Positions 1 to 8,914 of a stretch of DNA of 9,077 nt are shown here, piece after piece. A program made the translations under genes and the position numbers. The notes beneath the pieces were generated by a model. It made no database searches and was not told where the DNA came from. It worked only from the letters and a program-made list of their open reading frames with translations. Position 1 is the stretch's first letter; each line of letters begins with the position of its first letter. Source of the DNA: Anaerolineae bacterium (GTDB taxonomy: Bacteria > Chloroflexota > Anaerolineae > Aggregatilineales > Phototrophicaceae); contig JANQRM010000041.1 in NCBI GenBank assembly GCA_028284565.1, forward strand, positions 1-9,077, given 5' to 3'.

Positions 1-3000
1 AACATCGTTCACATCAAAGGCACGCACACGCCAGTAATAGGTTCCCAAAGCTAAGTCATCCGTTGGCGTATAGGTCAGGGCGTTGGCATCAAACACCGTT
101 GTCGAAGGCGGACCCAGAATATCAAGTTGCATCTCATAGCGAATCGCTGTGGGTACAGCTAACCAGTCGAAGGTCGGTGTAAAATCAAAGGTCTGGCTCA
201 TATCCGCTGGATTCTGTAAGGTTGGTGCAACCAATTGACTGTTAATTGCTAGGTTGCGCACTTCACTCCACGGACCATCACCAAAGTCATTACTCGCACG
301 GACTCGCCAGTAGTGAACGCCATCTGCCATTGTTACAAGTTCTTCTGTGTCCCCTTCTGTCATGTCCGTCTCTGGGCTAGAGAAGTCATTGTTGTCATCA
401 ATTTGAATCTGATAGTTAGTTCCTCCAGCAACGAAATCCCAATCGAAGTTGACATCGGACATCGTACTCTTGTAATCATCAGCTGGCGAAACCAAGACAG
501 GCGCGTCAAAGGGCGGGGATGTCGAAAAGATATTGAGGAATAAATCGCCTGTAATATTACTACCAAATCCATCATAACCAATTAAGAAATGGTAAGTGGT
601 ATTGCCTGTCATGGCGAATTCGACTCGTGAGGTTAAATCTGAGGGGAAGTTGATGTCATTATTACAGGCTACCTCGGTTAAACTCCCCGGTGAACCTGTC
701 CACACCGACAAGAGCGTATCATAATGCGATCCGACGGTCTCGGCGCGAATGGTTCCTCCACTTGGAGGTGCGGTATAGCTATACCAAACTGTGCGTATCG
801 GGAAGATTTCAAACTGACAAGCGGAGTTGGGGTCATTGGCTTCCGTTGTTGCATATTGCGTATAATTGAAGTCATTATAGGGTAATGAACCGATGATTTG
901 TCGTTGTGCGAAGTTATCTCCCTTTACGGCATTCCTGAAATTCAATTGCACATAACCACTATCACCATTGATACCCCCCACAGCAATGTAATACGTCGTT
1001 CCAGCAGAGACTCCAAAGGCAAATCCAAAAGTACTCGAATCACAGCCGATCTCGGTCAAACTTGAGCCGTTATCACGGTAGGCAGCAACCACTACCCCGA
1101 AATATGTGCCTAACGCATTCACTTCAATGGTCTCATTCTGAGTAGGTGTGTATTGATACCAAAGAGTCCGTCCGGTTGTTTCACAAGAAGGAAGTTGTTC
1201 TCCAGCTTCAATGGTTGCGAAGAAATTGGAATGGACAATATTGCTCATCGTATCCGGAATCACCATAGCATTGGCAATATCATCATTGAAGGGGCGCACC
1301 GGTTGATTTTCAAAGGTGATGGTGTCTGGTTGGATTTGGAAATCTTCCCAGCGGTCATGATCGTCACGACTTTCATCTCGTCCTAGGGTATTCCCAAGAG
1401 TTGGTGATGGTGAATTACCATCATCCCGCCAATTGCTTCCGGGTGTCGGTTTAATGGTCGAACTGCCCCAGCGAACAAAATCAATGCCCACATCCCCGTT
1501 GTGTAAATCCACTGTACCCGTTGCTCCAGCTGTCCATGTGCTGGTGAAGCTCCCCATGTACAGTGTCGTTGCCGTATCAGTTCCAGTACCTTGATATACA
1601 ACTATTCGCCCACCCACTGGAATCGTGATTCCGTTAGGGAACGAATAATCCATTTCAAGCGTGTTGCTATTACCATACAAGAGCAGATGCCAACCTGTAA
1701 GTACGGCGGGTGATGCATCAAGGTTACGAATTTCGATGGCTTTTGTGCCATTCACCTGAACTTCATTGATAATGACATCATATACTTGTCCGACTCCGCC
1801 CAGTAGTGTTGTGACAGCAGTGTCTACTTGAATACGGGGTTTTGTGATGTTGTTGTCATTGTCTGTCGTCGGTACACCAGAGAGAACTAAAGCATCCAAT
1901 ATCTCTTGAATGGTTGCACCGTTGTCTTCTCCACGTAGAACAGCGAATGCCCCTGCCACATGAGGAGCCGCCATCGATGTACCGTTCGCCGTAAACGTGA
2001 GGGTGTCGGGAAATGATGAGGTAATGTTTGAACCCGGTGCAAGTAAATCCACCAAACCCGAACTATTAGAAAAAGATGATACCGTGTCGCTGGTATCGAG
2101 AGTAGAACCCACAGTAATCGCTGATGAGATACAAGCGGGTCGCCCAATAGAATCATCGAAACCATCATTCCCTGATGAAACAACTGGCGCAATGCCAAAG
2201 GATATCAGATTATCGAAAATGTCTTTGAAATGAGGTGCGTCGGCATCACAATATCCTTCATACCGTCCACCTCCCAAGCTCATATTGGCAGAGACAATAG
2301 GAATTGCAGAGTTGTTCTTGAGGTCAATGACATGCTCTAAGCCTTCGATAATATTGAAATCAAATGCTCGCACATCGCTACCGCCTTGGATATGGAAGAC
2401 CTGAATACTGGCAATTTGAGCATCGGGTGCGACTCCATTGTAAGCTACTCCACCTGATGTGCCATTTCCAGCGGCGATGCCCGCTACATGTGTTCCATGA
2501 AAACAATCGAAAAGGCTACAATCTTCACCAGAACCGGGACCCAATTGGAAGTCTTGTCCATTAGGGCAAGTGGATTGAATGCCTAACGGACTAAAGTTAA
2601 TCGAGAAGCAGGCTTCTTCAATGACTTTGCCACCCAAGAAAGGATGGGCGGCATGAATACCAGTATCGAGAACCGCAACCACTTGTCCTGAGCCACGATA
2701 GCCCGATACATGGGCATTGGTTGCACCGATCTGAACCGTACTTTGTCCTAAGTGCGCTTCATTGAGATTGTCGTGAAAAATTCCAGTGACGACAGGTGAA
2801 TCAACGAGCGTCCATAGGGCTTGTTCATCAACATAGAGTGCCACGTAAGGAATATAGCGGAAGGTCGCATTAGTGAGGGCATTAGTATCAGCTAGTTCAT
2901 TTAATAATTGGGTTTGTGCCTGTTGAATAGAAACCCGTTGAGCCGTAATGGCTTGTGAATTCGGCAAATAGCCTTCTGGTGAGAAGGTTGCATTCACACG

Positions 3001-4383
3001 CACGATTACTTGGACTCCACCTTCCGTGCGGACTTTATCGAAGAAGTCGAGATATTCGGGTGGTACTGTGCGTGGTGTCTCCGTTGGTGGGATTGCGGGT
3101 TCATCGACACGAACCAGATTACCTTCATCGATGAAATTTTGTCCCGTGGCAATCTCTAAGATGGCTAATCCGGCAACATAGGGTGAGGCAAAGGAGGTTC
3201 CGTTGTGCATCGAATAGGATTGATTCAATCCGGTCGATAAGACATCCCGACCCGGTGCATAGACATTCACGCCATCACCATAATTGCTGAACGAACTGAC
3301 TTGTCCATTGGCATCCACCGCTCCCACTGCGAGTACCCCCTCATACGCCGCTGGATAGAGTGTCTGATTCGCCCCATTATTCCCAGCCGCCGCAATGATC
3401 CGCACATTCCGTTCACGAGCATAATTGATGACACTTTCGAGAATGGATGAGGGATAAGCTCCGCCGAGACTGAGGTTAATCAACTGTGCGCCATGGTCTG
3501 TTGCGTAGAGAATCGCTTCGGCAACATCCGCATAAGTTCCGATGCCACTGGCATCAAGGACACGCAGGGGCATCACATGAACATTGGGGGCGACACCGAC
3601 GATGCCAATTCCATTGCTCGATTGTGCGCCAATAATTCCAGCAACTGCACAACCATGACCCAGTTCATCTTGCGGGGAGGAATCATGCTCAACAAAATCC
3701 CAGCCCGCTATCAAGTTTGATTGTAAATCAGCGTGAGCAAGGCAAACACCACTGTCGATGACTGCCACCTTAACAGTCGGCAGTGATTCAGGCAAACCGA
3801 GCCACATATCGGGCAAGCCCAAGGCTGGGAATGCCCACTGTTGATCATACAACGGGTCGTTGGTCGGGAAGGAAAGTAAAGCCGACACATAATAATTCGG
3901 TTCGCTCAATTGGACGGATGGTGAAGCCATAATTTGTTGCGCCACTTGTTCGTCAGGAACAAGAAGCACCACCGCATCAATGCCATCGAGTGTCTGAGTC
4001 ACTTGGGCATTGAAGGACTGAATAATCTCACGACGTTCAGTATCGGATATCGTTGGATCAAAGCGGACGATCACTTCATTACGCACCGCTGGTTCGATAG
4101 GTTGGGCAATCTCGCTGTCTTGACGGCGGTTGGAATCGCTGAGATTATTCAACTGATTCTGGAGCGTTTCGTCCCCGCGACGATTGGTCAAAGACTCAGC
4201 AACTGGCGAAGGCACAAGGGTTGGGGCAATAGTAGGCGAGTCTGCAACTGTTGGTGATGGTTCCAATGTTGGGAGAACCGCCAGTGTAGGGAGTGGCGGA
4301 TCACTTTGCCCAGCACATCCACTCACAATGAGAAGTAGAAACACTGACAGAAGAAGATTTCGCCCAAGTTGGTTCACTTGCAT
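1..4383 (-). CDS. Tandem double-subtilase surface lipoprotein (S8 family), C-terminus beyond the window
   Basis: The frame is open from an ATG at 4383 to the left edge (1461 codons, no stop), so the C-terminus is missing. The N-terminus is a lipoprotein signal with lipobox VSGC (Cys23), then a Thr/Pro linker. A propeptide-like region (about 65-185) precedes protease module 1, whose triad is Asp210 (VIDSG), His243 (GHGCAVAG) and Ser397 (NGTSFASP), with oxyanion Asn335. A second propeptide-like stretch (about 440-555) precedes module 2: Asp573 (VLDTG), His629 (HGTHVAG), Ser803 (NGTSMAAP), Asn739 (SSGND). Next come a lamin-tail-like domain (about 864-1010), two pre-peptidase C-terminal-like domains (about 1034-1148 and 1160-1280) and fibronectin III-like repeats with YWRVRA motifs (from about 1288; the second is cut). 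It should be a lipid-anchored extracellular endoprotease. It is the last visible gene of the operon, 85 bases after the cohesin gene. Family and catalytic assignment are strong; the substrate is unknown. Confidence 0.94.
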   Translation of the reverse strand, partial: MQVNQLGRNLLLSVFLLLIVSGCAGQSDPPLPTLAVLPTLEPSPTVADSPTIAPTLVPSPVAESLTNRRGDETLQNQLNNLSDSNRRQDSEIAQPIEPAVRNEVIVRFDPTISDTERREIIQSFNAQVTQTLDGIDAVVLLVPDEQVAQQIMASPSVQLSEPNYYVSALLSFPTNDPLYDQQWAFPALGLPDMWLGLPESLPTVKVAVIDSGVCLAHADLQSNLIAGWDFVEHDSSPQDELGHGCAVAGIIGAQSSNGIGIVGVAPNVHVMPLRVLDASGIGTYADVAEAILYATDHGAQLINLSLGGAYPSSILESVINYARERNVRIIAAAGNNGANQTLYPAAYEGVLAVGAVDANGQVSSFSNYGDGVNVYAPGRDVLSTGLNQSYSMHNGTSFASPYVAGLAILEIATGQNFIDEGNLVRVDEPAIPPTETPRTVPPEYLDFFDKVRTEGGVQVIVRVNATFSPEGYLPNSQAITAQRVSIQQAQTQLLNELADTNALTNATFRYIPYVALYVDEQALWTLVDSPVVTGIFHDNLNEAHLGQSTVQIGATNAHVSGYRGSGQVVAVLDTGIHAAHPFLGGKVIEEACFSINFSPLGIQSTCPNGQDFQLGPGSGEDCSLFDCFHGTHVAGIAAGNGTSGGVAYNGVAPDAQIASIQVFHIQGGSDVRAFDFNIIEGLEHVIDLKNNSAIPIVSANMSLGGGRYEGYCDADAPHFKDIFDNLISFGIAPVVSSGNDGFDDSIGRPACISSAITVGSTLDTSDTVSSFSNSSGLVDLLAPGSNITSSFPDTLTFTANGTSMAAPHVAGAFAVLRGEDNGATIQEILDALVLSGVPTTDNDNNITKPRIQVDTAVTTLLGGVGQVYDVIINEVQVNGTKAIEIRNLDASPAVLTGWHLLLYGNSNTLEMDYSFPNGITIPVGGRIVVYQGTGTDTATTLYMGSFTSTWTAGATGTVDLHNGDVGIDFVRWGSSTIKPTPGSNWRDDGNSPSPTLGNTLGRDESRDDHDRWEDFQIQPDTITFENQPVRPFNDDIANAMVIPDTMSNIVHSNFFATIEAGEQLPSCETTGRTLWYQYTPTQNETIEVNALGTYFGVVVAAYRDNGSSLTEIGCDSSTFGFAFGVSAGTTYYIAVGGINGDSGYVQLNFRNAVKGDNFAQRQIIGSLPYNDFNYTQYATTEANDPNSACQFEIFPIRTVWYSYTAPPSGGTIRAETVGSHYDTLLSVWTGSPGSLTEVACNNDINFPSDLTSRVEFAMTGNTTYHFLIGYDGFGSNITGDLFLNIFSTSPPFDAPVLVSPADDYKSTMSDVNFDWDFVAGGTNYQIQIDDNNDFSSPETDMTEGDTEELVTMADGVHYWRVRASNDFGDGPWSEVRNLAINSQLVAPTLQNPADMSQTFDFTPTFDWLAVPTAIRYEMQLDILGPPSTTVFDANALTYTPTDDLALGTYYWRVRAFDVNDV

Positions 4384-4392
4384 TCTCAATTA

Positions 4393-4468: not shown

Positions 4469-5326
4469 CTACTTTCGTCGTTGCCAGATAAACAACCCCA
4501 GCAAACCAATTACTGCAATTACTATCAATAGAATCGGAATCACAACGAGTCCATTACTATTGTCCTCTGCGACATCATTTGGTAGAGGAATCGTTGTAAG
4601 CGGTTCAGGCGTGGCTGTCGTAAGTGGTGGTGCAGTTACATTCACCAAGGTTGGCTCTTCTGTCGCAAACTCTCCCCGATTGACCTCAGCAATAGTGGGA
4701 GTCATTGTAGGTGTGGCACTGACTTCTGGTGGCGGAGACGCTGGGTCGCCCTGTAGGGTTAAATTGACTAGAATGGGCGTGAACGGAATAGCTTCGCCTC
4801 CTTCAGCGATGCGTTGTCCATCTTGTTCGACAAAGTTGGCTTTGGCAAATTGGGCTTGCTGGAAGAAGAGTTGAGTCTCCCCCGCTTGCAATGGCACAAT
4901 CTCGAATGTACCTAAGACCCCACTGCCATCGACAGGCTCTGCTGGATTCACGAGTGACTGGAGATAGTGGAGAGTGTTCCCATCGATTTGATTGCTCAAA
5001 ACAATCGACTCTTGGTTAGTCAATAACTCACCGGGTTCAACAGGTGTACCCGATTCTGTGCCGATGATATAAAGCTGGTTCGGGTCATATTGCAGAGTCA
5101 AACTCACCAACCACAGTTCACTGACATTCTCGACTGAGATGGTAACAGAATAAGTTTGCCCGGTTGCTAAAGCTGTCTCAGCAAGGTCAAGGCGCAAGCG
5201 GGTCTCATCTTGTGCGAGTAATGTGGAACTCAGCACAATGAGTAGCAATATACAAAACCCGCGTAAGAGACGACTCACCCAAAGCCCTTTCTTTGCTCGG
5301 TATCGACGAAGGGGAAGTAATATCAC
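4469..5326 (-). CDS. Membrane-anchored cohesin-domain protein
   Basis: A signal peptide (hydrophobic core about residues 23-36, likely cleavage near LLAQ at 39) is followed by a beta-sandwich at about 43-192. Its layout matches cohesins: an opening LRLDLAE strand, ATGQTYSVTISVENV, SLTLQYDPNQL, then GSGVLGTFEIVPLQAGET, where cohesins carry a similar late strand. A Thr/Pro linker (193-258) leads to one hydrophobic helix (259-280) and a basic WQRRK tail. The domain should sit outside the cell, held in the membrane. There is no LPXTG motif, so this is not sortase anchoring. Known cohesins bind dockerins, and the two genes just upstream encode dockerins, so this is the likely receptor. The start is uncertain: the GTG used here overlaps a strong Shine-Dalgarno sequence, while an in-frame GTG at 5278 gives a more compact signal peptide (MSRLLRGF) behind AAAGGG. 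The family call is by pattern, without an alignment search. Confidence 0.85.
   Translation of the reverse strand: MILLPLRRYRAKKGLWVSRLLRGFCILLLIVLSSTLLAQDETRLRLDLAETALATGQTYSVTISVENVSELWLVSLTLQYDPNQLYIIGTESGTPVEPGELLTNQESIVLSNQIDGNTLHYLQSLVNPAEPVDGSGVLGTFEIVPLQAGETQLFFQQAQFAKANFVEQDGQRIAEGGEAIPFTPILVNLTLQGDPASPPPEVSATPTMTPTIAEVNRGEFATEEPTLVNVTAPPLTTATPEPLTTIPLPNDVAEDNSNGLVVIPILLIVIAVIGLLGLFIWQRRK
4751..5200 (-). other. Cohesin-like module (domain within the membrane-anchored protein)
   Basis: About 150 residues of alternating beta-strands have cohesin landmarks: an early ATGQTYSVTISVENVS segment, a LQYDPNQL strand turn and a late GVLGTFEIVPLQAGETQL segment. It is the only cohesin-like module in the protein, so the protein is a single-site receptor rather than a multi-cohesin scaffoldin. 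Confidence 0.75.
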
Positions 5327-5331
5327 CTCCC
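5322..5331 (-). promoter_or_regulatory. Strong Shine-Dalgarno sequence at the cohesin gene start
   Basis: The minus strand reads GGGAGGTGAT, nearly the full complement of the 16S rRNA 3' end. It overlaps the GTG at 5326, so it cannot serve that codon with normal spacing, and no standard in-frame start lies 5-9 bases after it. It lies in the 28-base gap after the upstream stop codon and may load ribosomes for the cohesin gene. Confidence 0.5.
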
Positions 5332-5354
5332 TCTTGCATTGGCTACACGGAAAT

Positions 5355-7424
5355 TTACGGAATCCAGTCTATTGTCGCTCGATGCGCATGGAGTTCTGTT
5401 GGTTGATTCAAATCACCGTTCCAGATTGCACCAAAGCCGCCAATCACCGTAATGGGTGAACCTGCATAGCTATCCACATAATGCAGAATAGGTGCATTCC
5501 AAGCTAGACCGCCTGTATTGAGCATGGTTTGGAAGTCGTCATCACCGAATTCATAGAACATGACATCCAACAAGTGTGATACATCATAGTAATCCACGCC
5601 TGTTGTGTTGGAGATTGTGACATGGGATGCACCAAGCGCACCAGTTACACTACCAGACCACACAGCTGTCACACGATTGTACATGACATCACCAGCGCGC
5701 AGATCATAGGTATCCCCACTGTCATCATAGAAACGATAGAATAGATACGTCGTTCCACCATAATGATTGATTACACTGGGCATATCTGCTACATCATCCC
5801 CAGTCACTTCGGTTTGTGATATCACTCCATGCGGAGTCGTTCCAGCAAAGTCATAGAAACAGAGTTGGTCAGGACACAATGTATGGTTCGATAAACCTGC
5901 ATAGATTAGCGTATTATCGTCATACCATGTAGGTGGGAAGATTTTGGCTTCGGTTTGCATTTGTCCAGAAGGGATAATCACGGTTAAGGAATTTCCAGTT
6001 GTATCATCCCGATTCATTACGCAGATATTGCCCTCGTTGTACTCATAACCCGAAACAGCATCTTGCCATGAACAGATGAAAGCAATTCGTTCACCATTGG
6101 GTGACCATGACGGTGCAAGTGATTCCCAATCAAAATCGCGTCGTGGGGTAAATTGACGAGCAGAACCACGTTCTGTATCTGCAATATAGAGATGATGTTG
6201 TCCAGTGCGACTATCAATCGAGGTTTGCACTACTTCGGTACCATCCGGTGACATCATCCCCCAGAAGTCACGGGTGCGACTGCGACTATCTAAGGCAGTT
6301 GTGGGTCCAGCCAAAATATCGCCCCACCAAACCTTGCTGTTGGGGAATGGACTTTGATAATCACGCGCCAAACTGTATAAAATATGATCAGCGGGAGTTG
6401 TAGCAGACCAATCCACATTGGCAGAGACAATCGCTAGGTCGGCTTCATCCACATCGCCATCGCCATTCGCATCACCCAATGTAAAATCTGGCACTGAACT
6501 TCCCCAATTGCCTGTGACTGTCACGACATCATTTACTAGGTCAATGATATCATCTGAGACAAAATCACCCGCACGAAGAGTCACAGGGAGTAGGAAATAA
6601 TTTGGTGTATCCAAATTAAGGAACAAGGTTGAAGACAGGAATGTCGCAAAGGGACTATCGAATTCACATTCATACAAGCCCTGATCGCGCAAGGCAGTTG
6701 CCTTATCCTTTGCACCGCCGAATGTGTATTCACCACGCCTATCTGTAAGAGTATTATAGGCTGTCGCTGACCCACTAGGATCATGGGTACATGTCACAGT
6801 GATATTTTCATGATCCCGCGACCCTTGATGAAGCACGCTACCTTCAATTGTATAGCCGATGAGCAATTCTAAACGATCTGAGCGAGAGAGTCGTCCGCGT
6901 TGGACGGTTTCCCCATTTCGATTAAGGAAATCGAGTGTACGACATCGGACTGATACAGAGGTATCACGGTCAAGGTCATTCACTTCAAAGGTTAAAGTCA
7001 AGAGTAATTGGACATAATTTTGCCCATTAACGCCCAAGGGTGCATTATCTGCGCCCAGCCGTGTTGCTGTGGCTTCAAATGTCGCGGTTGCCTCATCAAA
7101 GAAGTTGGCTGTTGGGAAGCTGGTAAAGTCTGTTCCATCAACACCCCAATCGGGACCCCAAGTCAGAGTAGCATTGCTGAGTTCACTTCGCCCAATAGTA
7201 CAATTGATATTAGCCGCCCAAAATTGAACATTCCCTTGCACATAAAGTTGTAAATCTACCGTGCGCGTATCGGATAAATCGGGGCGACTCGTCAATTGTT
7301 CGATAGGTGTCCACAGAGCAATGACATTTAATTCTGGTCGCTGGGCGGATGTCGGCAATATCAGCCAGACAGTCAATAGCATCAGTAAAAATATCATTCG
7401 TTTGGGGATATAACTTCGAATCAT
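5355..7424 (-). CDS. Secreted dockerin protein with TolB/PD40-like beta-propeller
   Basis: Numbering is from the ATG at 7424 (689 residues). A TTG two codons earlier (7430) is possible but too close to the GAAGGAG ribosome site. A signal peptide ends near TSA-Q (27/28). Residues about 32-188 form a beta-rich domain, possibly a divergent cohesin-like or Ig-like sandwich. Residues about 190-285 resemble a carboxypeptidase-regulatory/SdrD-B-like sandwich (YTIEGSVL ... RRGEYTFGG). Residues about 286-340 are dockerin-like: the second calcium loop is canonical (Asp318, Asn320, Asp322, Asp324, Asp329 in GDANGDGDVDEAD), while the first (GDFVSDDIIDLVN) lacks several ligands. From about 385 to the end there are propeller blades of the PD40/TolB type (MMSPDGTEVV, APSWSPNGERIAF, NICVMNRDD). 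No catalytic motif is visible. The protein is probably exported and held at the surface through its dockerin, with the propeller as a binding platform. It is the second gene of the operon. Confidence 0.88.
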   Translation of the reverse strand: MIRSYIPKRMIFLLMLLTVWLILPTSAQRPELNVIALWTPIEQLTSRPDLSDTRTVDLQLYVQGNVQFWAANINCTIGRSELSNATLTWGPDWGVDGTDFTSFPTANFFDEATATFEATATRLGADNAPLGVNGQNYVQLLLTLTFEVNDLDRDTSVSVRCRTLDFLNRNGETVQRGRLSRSDRLELLIGYTIEGSVLHQGSRDHENITVTCTHDPSGSATAYNTLTDRRGEYTFGGAKDKATALRDQGLYECEFDSPFATFLSSTLFLNLDTPNYFLLPVTLRAGDFVSDDIIDLVNDVVTVTGNWGSSVPDFTLGDANGDGDVDEADLAIVSANVDWSATTPADHILYSLARDYQSPFPNSKVWWGDILAGPTTALDSRSRTRDFWGMMSPDGTEVVQTSIDSRTGQHHLYIADTERGSARQFTPRRDFDWESLAPSWSPNGERIAFICSWQDAVSGYEYNEGNICVMNRDDTTGNSLTVIIPSGQMQTEAKIFPPTWYDDNTLIYAGLSNHTLCPDQLCFYDFAGTTPHGVISQTEVTGDDVADMPSVINHYGGTTYLFYRFYDDSGDTYDLRAGDVMYNRVTAVWSGSVTGALGASHVTISNTTGVDYYDVSHLLDVMFYEFGDDDFQTMLNTGGLAWNAPILHYVDSYAGSPITVIGGFGAIWNGDLNQPTELHAHRATIDWIP
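6405..6569 (-). other. Asymmetric dockerin-like module (domain within the propeller protein)
   Basis: The second calcium loop is a textbook DxNxDxD...D loop. The first half keeps the spacing and the GDxxSDD start and ends in VTGNWG, a common end of dockerin halves, but has Val and Ile at liganding positions. It is either a one-calcium dockerin or a dockerin-derived stabilising element. Confidence 0.65.
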
Positions 7425-7433
7425 GAGCAAATA

Positions 7434-7440
7434 CTCCTTC
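7434..7440 (-). promoter_or_regulatory. Ribosome binding site that fixes the start of the propeller-dockerin gene
   Basis: The minus strand reads GAAGGAG, nine bases before the ATG at 7424 and only three before the competing TTG at 7430. This spacing favours the ATG. Confidence 0.8.
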
Positions 7441-7472
7441 TGATAAACCCTTCATAAACGTTGCAGACCATG

Positions 7473-8471
7473 TTAACTCTCCTCCGTTGGTGTTGGAGTG
7501 TTGCTTGGTGTTGGTGTAGTGGTGACAGTCGGTGACTGAGTTGCGGTTGTGGTATTCAGTGGCGTTGCCGATGCAGTTGGCAACAATGTTTCTGAGACAC
7601 TGATGGTTGATGTTATTTCTGGTAAATCGGTTGAAGAGACTGTTGGAATGAGTGTCACTTCTTCCGTGATTTCAATATCGAGTGTTAATGTTGGCACAGT
7701 TGTTTGGGTAGGTGAAATGGGTGTTGGTGTTAAAGATATGGGTTGTGTTGGCGATATCGCAGTCAGTGGTGTAGCGATTGGAGTATGGACTTCTTCAATT
7801 GGCGGTGCTGTTTGTGTTGCAATTACTATTGGCATGGGCGTTGCAGTTGCCAAGACAGGTATACAATTTGCATCATAATTGCCAGCGAGAAGTGCCAATT
7901 CAGCCGAATTTACTTTTCCATCGCCTGTCATATCATATTGAGGATTGGCGGATTGAAGATCAACATGCAAGAGTTCCATATCTTGTTGATTGATACATCC
8001 ATCGCTGTTTAAATCACCAGCAGGTAAGATAACTAGGGGTAGTGGATTACCTACGTCAATCACCACATGAATGGATTGATGATAAGGTGCATTAAAGCGG
8101 AGTTCATATTGCTCTATAACTGGTACATTGAGGACATATTTGCCTTGAGAATCCGTTTGTGATTCTCCCACGACTTGTCCGACATGATTGATGACTTTCA
8201 CGAGGATACCTCGCTGATCTTCATCATTTTGGTGGCGCACAATACCCATCAATTGAACGTTGGGTGTGATGGATGTTGCTGATGAAGAGATCGCCTGTGG
8301 TCGTGTGGGTAATACATTGACCCCTGTTGAGGTAATTTCTGGGGTTGTTTCTGGTGATAGAACAACTTCAGGAGTTGCTTCTTGGGCAGAGACCACTTGC
8401 CAAAAGCCTAACCACCCTAATAAGCAAATACCTGTTCCAGTTACCAGACGCGACAACCAATAGACTTTCAA
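7473..8471 (-). CDS. Secreted dockerin adaptor protein with Thr/Pro-rich tail
   Basis: The start is a TTG at 8471, six bases after an AGGGG ribosome site, and no ATG competes. The signal peptide ends at VSA-Q (29/30). A Thr/Pro linker (30-70) leads to a small carboxypeptidase-regulatory-like beta-sandwich (71-150: GIVRH ... DSQGKYVLNVP ... YELRF). A canonical two-loop dockerin follows at about 151-203. Loop 1 has Asp153, Asn155, Asp157, Asn161 and Asp164; loop 2 has Asp180, Thr182, Asp184, Asn188 and Glu191. The remaining 130 residues (positions about 7476-7862) are low-complexity Thr/Pro/Ser with no membrane helix, so the protein is secreted and unanchored on its own. No enzyme domain is present, which suggests an adaptor or structural subunit docking on the cohesin protein encoded two genes downstream. 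It is the first gene of the minus-strand operon. Confidence 0.88.
   Translation of the reverse strand: MKVYWLSRLVTGTGICLLGWLGFWQVVSAQEATPEVVLSPETTPEITSTGVNVLPTRPQAISSSATSITPNVQLMGIVRHQNDEDQRGILVKVINHVGQVVGESQTDSQGKYVLNVPVIEQYELRFNAPYHQSIHVVIDVGNPLPLVILPAGDLNSDGCINQQDMELLHVDLQSANPQYDMTGDGKVNSAELALLAGNYDANCIPVLATATPMPIVIATQTAPPIEEVHTPIATPLTAISPTQPISLTPTPISPTQTTVPTLTLDIEITEEVTLIPTVSSTDLPEITSTISVSETLLPTASATPLNTTTATQSPTVTTTPTPSNTPTPTEES
7863..8021 (-). other. Canonical dockerin module (domain within the secreted adaptor)
   Basis: This is the part of the gene coding for the two F-hand-like calcium loops, of the type DxNxDGxxNxxD, about 27 residues apart. Dockerins with this pattern bind cohesins in a calcium-dependent way. 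Positions 10 and 11 of the loops, which govern partner choice in known dockerins, are Gln-Gln and Ser-Ala. The two halves therefore differ, and the dual binding mode seen in symmetric dockerins is less likely. Confidence 0.82.
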
Positions 8472-8886: not shown

Positions 8887-8914
8887 AACCCGACTTTGGC
8901 AGAGTCGGGTTTTT
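8887..8914 (+). terminator. Terminator-like hairpin in the leader of the rightward gene
   Basis: AACCCGACT (8887-8895) pairs without mismatch with AGTCGGGTT (8903-8911) around a 7-base loop. The T-run, counted from the stem, is TTTTT at 8910-8914. The form is that of an intrinsic terminator. It begins only about 14 bases after the predicted transcription start, so it would end a transcript of about 40 bases, or act as an attenuator or 5' stabilising hairpin. Confidence 0.65.

What the first reader, a model, noticed from the sequence alone, without database searches (positions are those of the whole stretch)
4469..8471. Compact cohesin-dockerin surface system outside any cellulosome
One apparent operon encodes a single-cohesin membrane-anchored protein and two different secreted dockerin proteins, with no carbohydrate-active enzyme in view. 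Seen: the dockerin calcium loops, the cohesin-like sandwich, the membrane helix and the short gaps. Known: cohesins bind dockerins tightly, and such modules occur outside cellulosomes. Inferred: the two dockerin proteins assemble on the anchored cohesin as a small surface complex, perhaps holding the propeller and adaptor close to the co-expressed protease.
Basis: partly seen in the sequence, partly recalled or inferred. Interest (0 to 1): 0.82.

Follow-up and report, generated by a model that had tools for sequence, protein, structure and literature searches.

The report
Three-gene cohesin–dockerin surface complex
This stretch of a probable uncultured Anaerolineae bacterium encodes three co-oriented surface proteins that carry both halves of the cohesin–dockerin protein clip best known from cellulose-degrading machines, but with no digestive enzyme in view, so it looks like a small dedicated surface assembly whose job is still unknown.

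Summary
Genes 8471→7473, 7430→5355 and 5326→4469 encode a dockerin protein, a dockerin–β-propeller protein and a single-pass membrane cohesin (Pfam Cohesin 31.7 bits, cut-off 24.1). Gene order is conserved in distant Anaerolineae MAGs: the membrane cohesin lies beside the propeller gene in 5 of 5 readable loci, the X-Doc gene in 4 of 4. In relatives G001, G003 and G005 each dockerin found by profile belongs to the cassette; G003 has one more weak cohesin. The S8 protease is adjacent only in the window, so the protease idea is not supported. Best model: membrane cohesin, Coh–X–Doc–propeller adaptor and X-Doc protein form a calcium-dependent surface complex. Binding and pairing are untested; structure prediction was off. 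Non-cellulosomal cohesin/dockerin systems and Doc+Coh adaptors are in print: new variant of a known kind.

The parts
7473..8471 (-). Gene 1: X-Doc protein, 332 aa: signal-like N-terminus (by eye), X-like domain, dockerin, P/T/S-rich tail (126 aa, 55% P/T/S)
   Evidence: ORF; Pfam; composition; no 19-residue window over hydropathy 1.6
8028..8258 (-). X-like module (CarboxypepD_reg-like) before the dockerin of gene 1
   Evidence: PF13620 26.7 bits, below its cut-off 32.3; X alone vs gene-2 X 52.5%, E 2.1e-5; X-Doc as a whole 99.3-99.6%
7854..8024 (-). Dockerin of gene 1, two Ca-binding loops
   Evidence: PF00404 27.7 bits, over the cut-off; loop residues conserved in 11 of 11
5355..7430 (-). Gene 2: Coh-X-Doc-propeller protein, 691 aa by the longest ORF, 689 aa from 7424
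6855..7265 (-). Divergent cohesin-like domain of gene 2 with two cysteines invariant in the 32 rows of A2 and the 14 rows of A5
   Evidence: hhalign 93.7% E 1.9e-7 against 12 order-level cohesins; weak or negative:
6579..6854 (-). X-like module of gene 2
   Evidence: PF13620 19.6 bits, below its cut-off; X-Doc hhalign 99.3% to gene 1
6387..6578 (-). Dockerin of gene 2; loop 1 degenerate, loop 2 canonical
   Evidence: PF00404 13.9 bits, under the cut-off; 23 of 32 family members match at E<=1
5358..6386 (-). PD40/TolB-like beta-propeller region of gene 2
   Evidence: PD40 in 32 of 32 family members at E<=1, the window's at 0.061; TolB propeller weak
4469..5326 (-). Gene 3: membrane-anchored single-cohesin protein, 285 aa by the longest ORF (or 269 aa from 5278)
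4784..5209 (-). Cohesin domain of gene 3
   Evidence: PF00963 31.7 bits; PDB cohesins
4484..4552 (-). C-terminal transmembrane helix, then QRRK
   Evidence: sequence; hydropathy
1..4389 (-). Neighbouring double-S8 protease with lipobox-like start and LTD, cut by the window end; not a conserved part of the cassette
   Evidence: Pfam; no S8 in the ORFs of the cassette loci L001-L006, L116 within held flanks

Best explanation
The cassette encodes a small calcium-dependent complex on the outside of the cytoplasmic membrane of a probable Anaerolineae bacterium. Gene 3 is the anchor: one cohesin on a P/T-rich stalk held by one helix. Gene 2 is an adaptor with a cargo: its X-Doc dyad is a plug, its N-terminal cohesin-like domain is a socket, and its beta-propeller is the displayed binding surface. 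Gene 1 is an X-Doc plug with a long P/T/S-rich tail. Most likely gene 2 docks on the membrane cohesin and gene 1 docks on gene 2 (or both compete for the anchor), giving a chain that places the propeller and the tail at or beyond the wall. Shown by computation: modules, Ca loops, conserved gene order, and no dockerin outside the cassette found in G001, G003 and G005. Inferred: binding, who binds whom, calcium dependence, export of gene 1, and a display, adhesion or ligand-capture role for the propeller.
For: Cohesin and gene-1 dockerin over the Pfam cut-offs; the gene-3 profile's PDB hits are mostly anchoring and ScaB-adaptor cohesins. X-Doc dyads of genes 1 and 2 are homologous (99.3%), and the X-Doc arrangement weakly recalls X-Doc chains 2b59_B and 3kcp_A (E 0.14 and 0.55). 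The N-terminal domain of gene 2 is cohesin-related, and the two sister big proteins scanned have a Pfam cohesin over the cut-off in front of X (32.6 and 27.5 bits). Gene order: of 6 family loci fetched by gene 2 alone, gene 3 was next to it in 5 of 5 with sequence on that side (L001-L005) and gene 1 in 4 of 4 (L001, L003, L005, L006); L116, fetched through gene 3, has all three; G004 has gene 1 on a second contig beside the start of gene 2. Repertoire: exactly 2 X-Doc matches in each of G001, G003, G005, both cassette genes; PF00404 at E<=0.01 finds none elsewhere there; the session's cohesin profile finds one cohesin each, gene 3.
Against: Dockerin 2 is under the Pfam cut-off and its first loop is degenerate. 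Only 1 of 32 gene-2 family members shows Pfam Cohesin at E<=1 (0.015); a 10-sequence profile finds no PDB cohesin; comparison with the gene-3 family alone gave 4.8% and with membrane cohesins of both cassettes 7.5-18.0%. The 93.7% came only with a broader reference set chosen later. The closed repertoire is not general: G002 has three further cohesin matches and a dockerin piece, and G004 and G481 carry a second system. In G003 Pfam Cohesin scores an S8-M10 protein higher (23.7 bits, 24.1 with neighbours) than gene 3 itself (22.2), although hmmscan gives it 17.4. G487 has a divergent ORF where gene 1 was expected. The propeller's ligand is unknown and MAG completeness was not told.
Confidence: 0.6

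Rival explanations
1. Self-polymerising fibre. Because gene 2 carries both a cohesin-like domain and a dockerin, copies can link head to tail into a fibre, started on the membrane cohesin (no dockerin) and capped by gene 1 (no cohesin). It would serve as an adhesive or matrix thread.
For: Coh-X-Doc in one chain in gene 2 and in sister proteins; the layout recurs in the order: 20 of 35 X-Doc matches in six sister-cassette genomes lie in an ORF that also has a cohesin match (tables compared by hand).
Against: Needs the domain to bind its own family's dockerin; no pairing data. Monovalent adaptors of cellulosomes are thought to switch between different cohesin-dockerin types (PMC11557425, passages).
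Confidence: 0.15
2. One reading: two dockerin proteins compete for or share one anchored cohesin, and this holds the propeller and adaptor near the co-expressed S8 protease.
For: The protease gene follows 79 bp downstream on the same strand with no terminator-like site between. A protease with a weakly scored cohesin exists in G003. A peptidase system of this kind (planctosome) has been proposed in Planctomycetes (PMC6461901, passages).
Against: No S8 domain beside the cassette in the held flanks of L001-L006 and L116; the visible 1463 aa and the relative L136 show no cohesin or dockerin by Pfam. The window protease is cut, so its far C-terminus is unseen.
Confidence: 0.1
3. The modules are vestigial or purely structural: X-Doc acts as a calcium-stiffened spacer inside each chain and the cohesin is an ordinary beta-sandwich stalk; no docking takes place.
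For: Degenerate first Ca loop in gene 2 and strong divergence of its cohesin-like domain.
Against: Cohesin and dockerin genes stay side by side across relatives whose gene 2 is 27-46% identical to the window's, and loop-1 residues are kept in 11 of 11 gene-1 sequences.
Confidence: 0.12

Closest known systems
Monovalent adaptor and non-SLH anchoring scaffoldins of cellulosomes (classes of PMC11557425, passages seen)
   Same: Doc + single cohesin in one chain (gene 2); single cohesin with a C-terminal TM helix as anchor (gene 3).
   Different: Here the adaptor carries a beta-propeller, a separate X-Doc protein is encoded in the same cassette, and no multi-cohesin protein or dockerin enzyme was found in G001, G003, G005.
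Paenibacillus guangzhouensis Doc-Coh proteins, many with a GH head (PMC11557425, passage seen)
   Same: Functional head plus one Doc-Coh pair in one protein, thought to dock on cell-surface anchors; called architecturally distinct from conventional cellulosomes.
   Different: There 28 such proteins and SLH anchors; here one non-enzymatic head and a TM anchor. The sister-cassette genomes' other proteins (GH10, GSDH and other heads) are nearer to that case.
Planctosome of freshwater Planctomycetes (PMC6461901, passages seen; hypothetical there)
   Same: Non-cellulosomal anchor + Doc/Coh adaptor model.
   Different: It recruits dockerin-bearing peptidases and has an LTD anchor; the window's protease has LTD but no dockerin in the visible part.
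ANME archaeal dockerin/cohesin proteins (PMC9012536, section 32 read)
   Same: Cohesin/dockerin used outside cellulose degradation, surface attachment suspected.
   Different: Scaffoldin-like proteins with up to 5 cohesins and dockerin-bearing solute-binding proteins; no X-Doc/propeller cassette in that section.
Type II cohesin / X-Doc pair of Clostridium thermocellum (PDB 2b59, 3kcp; type and organism recalled)
   Same: X-like beta-sandwich directly before dockerin; cell-surface cohesin.
   Different: The match is weak (E 0.14, 0.55); the specificity type here is not determined.

Membership tests
Cohesin (PF00963), gene 3 | Score over the Pfam gathering cut-off | tested here: met
   31.7 vs 24.1 bits
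Cohesin (PF00963), gene 2 N-terminus | Score over the Pfam gathering cut-off | tested here: not met
   No hit for the window protein at E<=1; 1 of 32 family members at E 0.015
Cohesin superfamily, gene 2 N-terminus | Profile homology along the domain | tested here: met
   93.7%, E 1.9e-7, 114 columns, 10 of 32 gene-2 rows against 12 chosen cohesins; 93.3-93.7% with 32 rows against 44 cohesins. Controls: 100 column shuffles max 5.9% where the true value was 18.1%; 60 shuffles max 13.7% where it was 85.0%. Against: 4.8% vs the gene-3 family alone, 7.5-18.0% vs membrane cohesins
Dockerin (PF00404), gene 1 | Cut-off and duplicated Ca loop | tested here: met
   27.7 vs 22.9 bits; loops conserved
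Dockerin (PF00404), gene 2 | Cut-off and duplicated Ca loop | tested here: inconclusive
   13.9 vs 22.9 bits; one canonical and one degenerate loop; dockerin alone 98.3% vs dockerin 1
Cohesin-dockerin system | High-affinity Ca-dependent binding | not testable with these tools
   Structure prediction switched off; needs the bench
Cellulosome | Scaffoldin with several cohesins | tested here: not met
   None among the four window proteins; one cohesin match each in G001, G003, G005, in G003 a second weak one by PF00963 in another protein. The window's own genome is not held
Cellulosome | Dockerin-bearing carbohydrate-active enzyme | tested here: not met
   Only cassette X-Docs in G001, G003, G005. 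In G004, which has both cassettes, a GH10 protein with X-Doc exists, and the session profile adds a cohesin
Cellulosome | Carbohydrate-binding module on the scaffold | not tested
   Pfam scans of single proteins only; none listed in window proteins
Monovalent adaptor scaffoldin | One dockerin and one cohesin in one protein | tested here: inconclusive
   Depends on the divergent cohesin-like domain
Planctosome-like peptidase complex | Peptidase with dockerin or cohesin in the system | tested here: not met
   The visible protease and the relative L136 show neither by Pfam; G003 has an unlinked S8-M10 protein with a weak cohesin

The most novel reading that the evidence does not exclude
A closed, enzyme-free cohesin-dockerin assembly in Chloroflexota, with all its plugs and sockets in one conserved cassette: a membrane cohesin, a Coh-X-Doc adaptor that displays a beta-propeller, and an X-Doc terminator. 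It would be the smallest self-sufficient cohesin-dockerin architecture known to me, possibly able to chain into fibres, and used for display or adhesion rather than digestion. (Lowered from 0.35 to 0.32 on rechecking: in G003 the cohesin side is not cleanly closed.)
Probability: 0.32. Interest if true: 0.7.

Novelty: new variant of a known kind. Interest (0 to 1): 0.5.

Why it matters
What cohesin–dockerin pairs do outside cellulosomes is an old open question (stated, for example, in PMC9012536). Here genomes with one cassette and no other dockerin found (G001, G003, G005) leave two plugs and, in G001 and G005, two sockets, so each pairing can be tested in a handful of binding assays. It also adds to a published remark that no cohesin or dockerin could be identified in five curated Anaerolineae genomes and UNI-1 (PMC4877987, passage; other genomes than these): in an even draw, 126 of 396 genomes of the class had a match to the gene-3 profile at E<=1e-3. 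Many of those matches are weak, at most 6 candidates a genome were scored, and the profile includes a P/T-rich stalk and a membrane helix, so the number is not a count of cohesins.

Tried and rejected
Rejected or weakened: (1) protease as a conserved partner. (2) 'Single cohesin' for the whole cassette. (3) A plasmid home for gene 3: no tblastn match in 'plasmids'. (4) PDB identification of the gene-2 N-terminus by sequence: none; best hits AcrF8 E 0.43 and an amidohydrolase E 1.5. (5) NCBIfam names for the four window proteins: none at its cut-off. (6) Promoter/terminator scan near chance overall (20 vs mean 16.2; 9 vs mean 7.1), so no operon claim rests on it. (7) Literature. Searches run. 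Cohesin+dockerin with Anaerolineae, Chloroflexi, Chloroflexota gave 3, 12 and 2 papers, cohesin with Aggregatilineales 0; these I judged by listing and opened none. Opened, passages only: PMC6461901, PMC4877987, PMC12484212, PMC11557425 (12 of 17 places shown), PMC4959524, PMC4217186; PMC9012536 passages and one section. Peer et al. 2009 is not held; I know it from citations and recall only.

Dropped before counts: of 56 loci (L007-L056) have only the propeller-type match and were not treated as cassette loci. Of L116-L135, 16 (L117-L132) are sister loci; L122 lacks the big protein; in L124 my gene picking hid the anchor behind a longer overlapping ORF, although the profile match exists; L133-L135 are not sister cassettes. 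Scored candidates were capped at 6, 16 and 7 a genome. Of the X-Doc proteins outside the cassettes, 10 were scanned with Pfam.
Full report
What was checked. The window has four large ORFs on the minus strand, in transcription order 8471-7473, 7430-5355, 5326-4469 and 4389-1 (the last cut by the window end). Pfam on these four: cohesin over the cut-off in the third (31.7 vs 24.1 bits); Dockerin_1 over the cut-off in the first (27.7 vs 22.9); sub-threshold Dockerin_1 (13.9), CarboxypepD_reg (19.6) and PD40 (13.7) in the second; two Peptidase_S8 stretches, LTD and other domains in the fourth. NCBIfam named none of them at its cut-off.

Relatives. Protein searches gave 7, 35 and 11 hits for genes 3, 2 and 1, the window's own included. 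For gene 2, 31 relatives are 27-46% identical over 57-100% of the query; three more match only 8-13% of it. Loci were fetched from genome contigs with the gene-2 alignment: 56 loci, of which 6 (L001-L006, titled Anaerolineae or Aggregatilineales MAGs) are family members and 50 have only the propeller-type match. In these 6, profiles of genes 3 and 1 hit the neighbouring ORFs: gene 3 downstream in 5 of 5 loci with sequence there (L006 ends inside gene 2) and gene 1 upstream in 4 of 4 (L002 and L004 begin inside gene 2). L116 (G481), fetched through gene 3, has all three. In G004 a second contig (L147) holds gene 1 followed by the start of gene 2, and its end matches the start of L004. Exceptions: L004 also has a second gene-2 copy beyond gene 3, with no gene 3 after it, and G487 has gene 2 on a 3,011-bp contig with a divergent T/P-rich ORF upstream, cut by the contig end, so its partners are not shown. 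Across the order, gene 2 was found in 8 of 154 genomes at E<=1e-40, and gene 3 at over 300 bits in 6 of 151.

The missed cohesin. In 14 further genomes, and as a second copy in G004 and G481, gene 3 has more distant relatives (75-94 bits). They belong to a sister cassette, 16 loci L117-L132: a big protein (692-834 aa), a membrane cohesin and an X-Doc protein whose N-terminus looks membrane-like by eye; 15 of 16 have the big protein and 16 of 16 the X-Doc protein. The two sister big proteins scanned (L125, L117) have Pfam Cohesin over the cut-off (32.6 and 27.5 bits), then CarboxypepD_reg over its cut-off and, for L125, Dockerin_1 over its cut-off: Coh-X-Doc. The N-terminal domain of the window's gene 2 sits in the same place before its own X-Doc and aligns with it; two cysteines are invariant in the 14 rows that I chose (10 of 32 gene-2, 4 of 15 sister) and in all 32 gene-2 rows. 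hhalign of this domain with the sister cohesins gave 18.1% in one direction (100 column shuffles at most 5.9%, reversed 0.2%) and 73.6% in the other. With hmmsearch against 32 family members plus six decoys each, the 11 hits ahead of the first decoy (E 1.5) in the Coh-X-Doc set were family members at residues 49-207, best E 3.8e-5; with the full set the 14 hits shown were family members, best E 1.1e-4. Results on the other side: the membrane-cohesin set alone gave nothing better than E 0.27, a decoy at rank 4, and 7.5-18.0% by hhalign; the gene-3 family alone gave 4.8%; only 1 of 32 family members reaches Pfam Cohesin at E<=1 (0.015); the profile finds no cohesin in the PDB. I put the domain's cohesin kinship at about 0.85; whether it still binds a dockerin is open.

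X-Doc. The dyads of genes 1 and 2 and of both sister proteins are mutually homologous (99.3-100%); between genes 1 and 2 the dockerin alone gives 98.3% and the X module alone only 52.5% (E 2.1e-5). Gene-1 dockerin keeps D1, N3, D5, D12 in loop 1 in 11 of 11 and D1, D5 in loop 2 in 11 of 11. Gene-2 dockerin keeps D1 32/32, D5 31/32, D12 32/32 in loop 2, while loop 1 is irregular. The gene-1 profile finds solved dockerins (best 2y3n_B E 2.6e-4) and, weakly, X-Doc chains 5k39_B, 2b59_B (E 0.14) and 3kcp_A (E 0.55). That likeness to type II X-Doc is a lead, not a result.

Repertoire. The window's own genome is not held, so this concerns relatives. With an X-Doc profile 11 genomes gave 45 matches at E<=1e-6. 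G001, G003 and G005 have two each, both in the cassette; PF00404 at E<=0.01 gives no dockerin outside the cassette in them; the session's cohesin profile at E<=1e-4 gives one each, gene 3. G006 has two matches in its one gene 1; its contig ends in gene 2. Exceptions: G002 has a 75-aa dockerin piece and three more cohesin matches; G004 and G481 also hold the sister cassette. In G003 PF00963 also finds an S8-M10 protein (23.7 bits, 24.1 with neighbours), higher than gene 3 (22.2) in the same search; hmmscan gives it 17.4 bits, under the cut-off, and the session's profile does not report it. So the dockerin side is closed in three genomes, the cohesin side in G001 and G005, as far as held; MAG completeness is not told. 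In six genomes with the sister cassette, 20 of 35 X-Doc matches share an ORF with a cohesin match (tables compared by hand). Of 10 X-Doc proteins outside the cassettes scanned with Pfam, heads include GH10, glucose/sorbosone dehydrogenase, PQQ propeller, beta-helix and DUF5060, in one case with a sub-threshold cellulase match; two (L180, L187) showed no head. So the sister system reaches into carbohydrate processing, while the window-type cassette in G001, G003 and G005 shows no such partner.

The protease. The S8 protease follows at 79 bp (longest ORFs) and no terminator-like site was found between on the minus strand, so co-transcription in the window is possible. But a phmmer search with its two S8 pieces found no S8 in the ORFs of L001-L006 and L116 within the held flanks, the best relative is elsewhere in G001 (C37; cassette on C80), and that relative, L136, 1801 aa, has S8, LTD and fn3 but neither cohesin nor dockerin at E<=0.01. 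It is best seen as a neighbour, with the caveat that the window's copy is cut.

How it may work. The modules are of the kind that bind with calcium, the anchor has a membrane helix after a P/T-rich stalk, gene 1 has a 126-residue tail with 55% P/T/S, gene 2 has a propeller. A linear complex (anchor cohesin with gene-2 X-Doc; gene-2 cohesin-like domain with gene-1 X-Doc) uses each module once and explains why the three genes stay together. In the sister cassette, where the X-Doc protein seems to have its own membrane segment, the same wiring would tie the big protein to the membrane at both ends. This wiring is inference. The alternatives are a chain of gene-2 copies, two plugs sharing the anchor, or no docking at all.

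Comparison. [quoted passage not shown] From PMC6461901 (passages): the planctosome hypothesis. From PMC9012536 (section 32): dockerin/cohesin proteins in ANME archaea and the remark that such domains occur outside cellulose degradation. From PMC4877987 (passage): no cohesin or dockerin identified in five curated Anaerolineae genomes and UNI-1. None of the passages I saw describes this cassette, and the listings showed no title that does; most subscription journals are not in that library. Hence: new variant of a known kind. The type I/II labels, the organism of 2b59/3kcp and any statement on the cell envelope of Anaerolineae are recalled, not tested here.

Score. A specialist would find the conserved cassette and the extra cohesin worth a look, and the pairing problem is unusually tractable; yet non-cellulosomal cohesin-dockerin systems have been known for years and no function is shown. 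Interest 0.5. On rechecking I lowered only the probability of the most novel reading (0.35 to 0.32) because of G003.

Noticed in passing
L117-L132 (16 loci): Sister cassette (big Coh-X-Doc protein, membrane cohesin, X-Doc protein with a membrane-like N-terminus) sits beside genes for EF-G, a SHMT-GcvT fusion and FtsH in many of these loci by look-alike N-termini; one example of each gene was named by NCBIfam.
   Followed up: partly
L125:396-2492, L118:1560-3932, L130:6535-9039, residues about 1-380: The sister big protein has a Cys/His-rich N-terminal half (CHYDHQHNDDP-like motif in several rows) with no Pfam match there in L125 and L117 and no NCBIfam match there in L125, L130, L118.
   Followed up: partly
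L134:5018-10066 (G003): S8 protease + matrixin (M10) + weak cohesin in one 1682-aa protein.
   Followed up: no
L146:1484-3580 (G004): GH10 enzyme ending in X-Doc, with a cohesin match before it by the session's profile.
   Followed up: partly
L004:2-5257: Two gene-2 paralogues flank gene 3 in G004, a local duplication.
   Followed up: no
window 1-4389: Double subtilase with lipobox-like start, LTD and GBD_T9SS_assoc domains, cut by the window end; relatives of its parts occur in 7 of 7 genomes searched.
   Followed up: partly
window 8887-8911: Hairpin upstream of gene 1, terminator-like on the minus strand, between the cassette and a divergent reading frame that starts at about 8960.
   Followed up: no
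L194 (G487): Gene 2 next to a divergently oriented, signal- and T/P-rich ORF, cut by the contig end.
   Followed up: no
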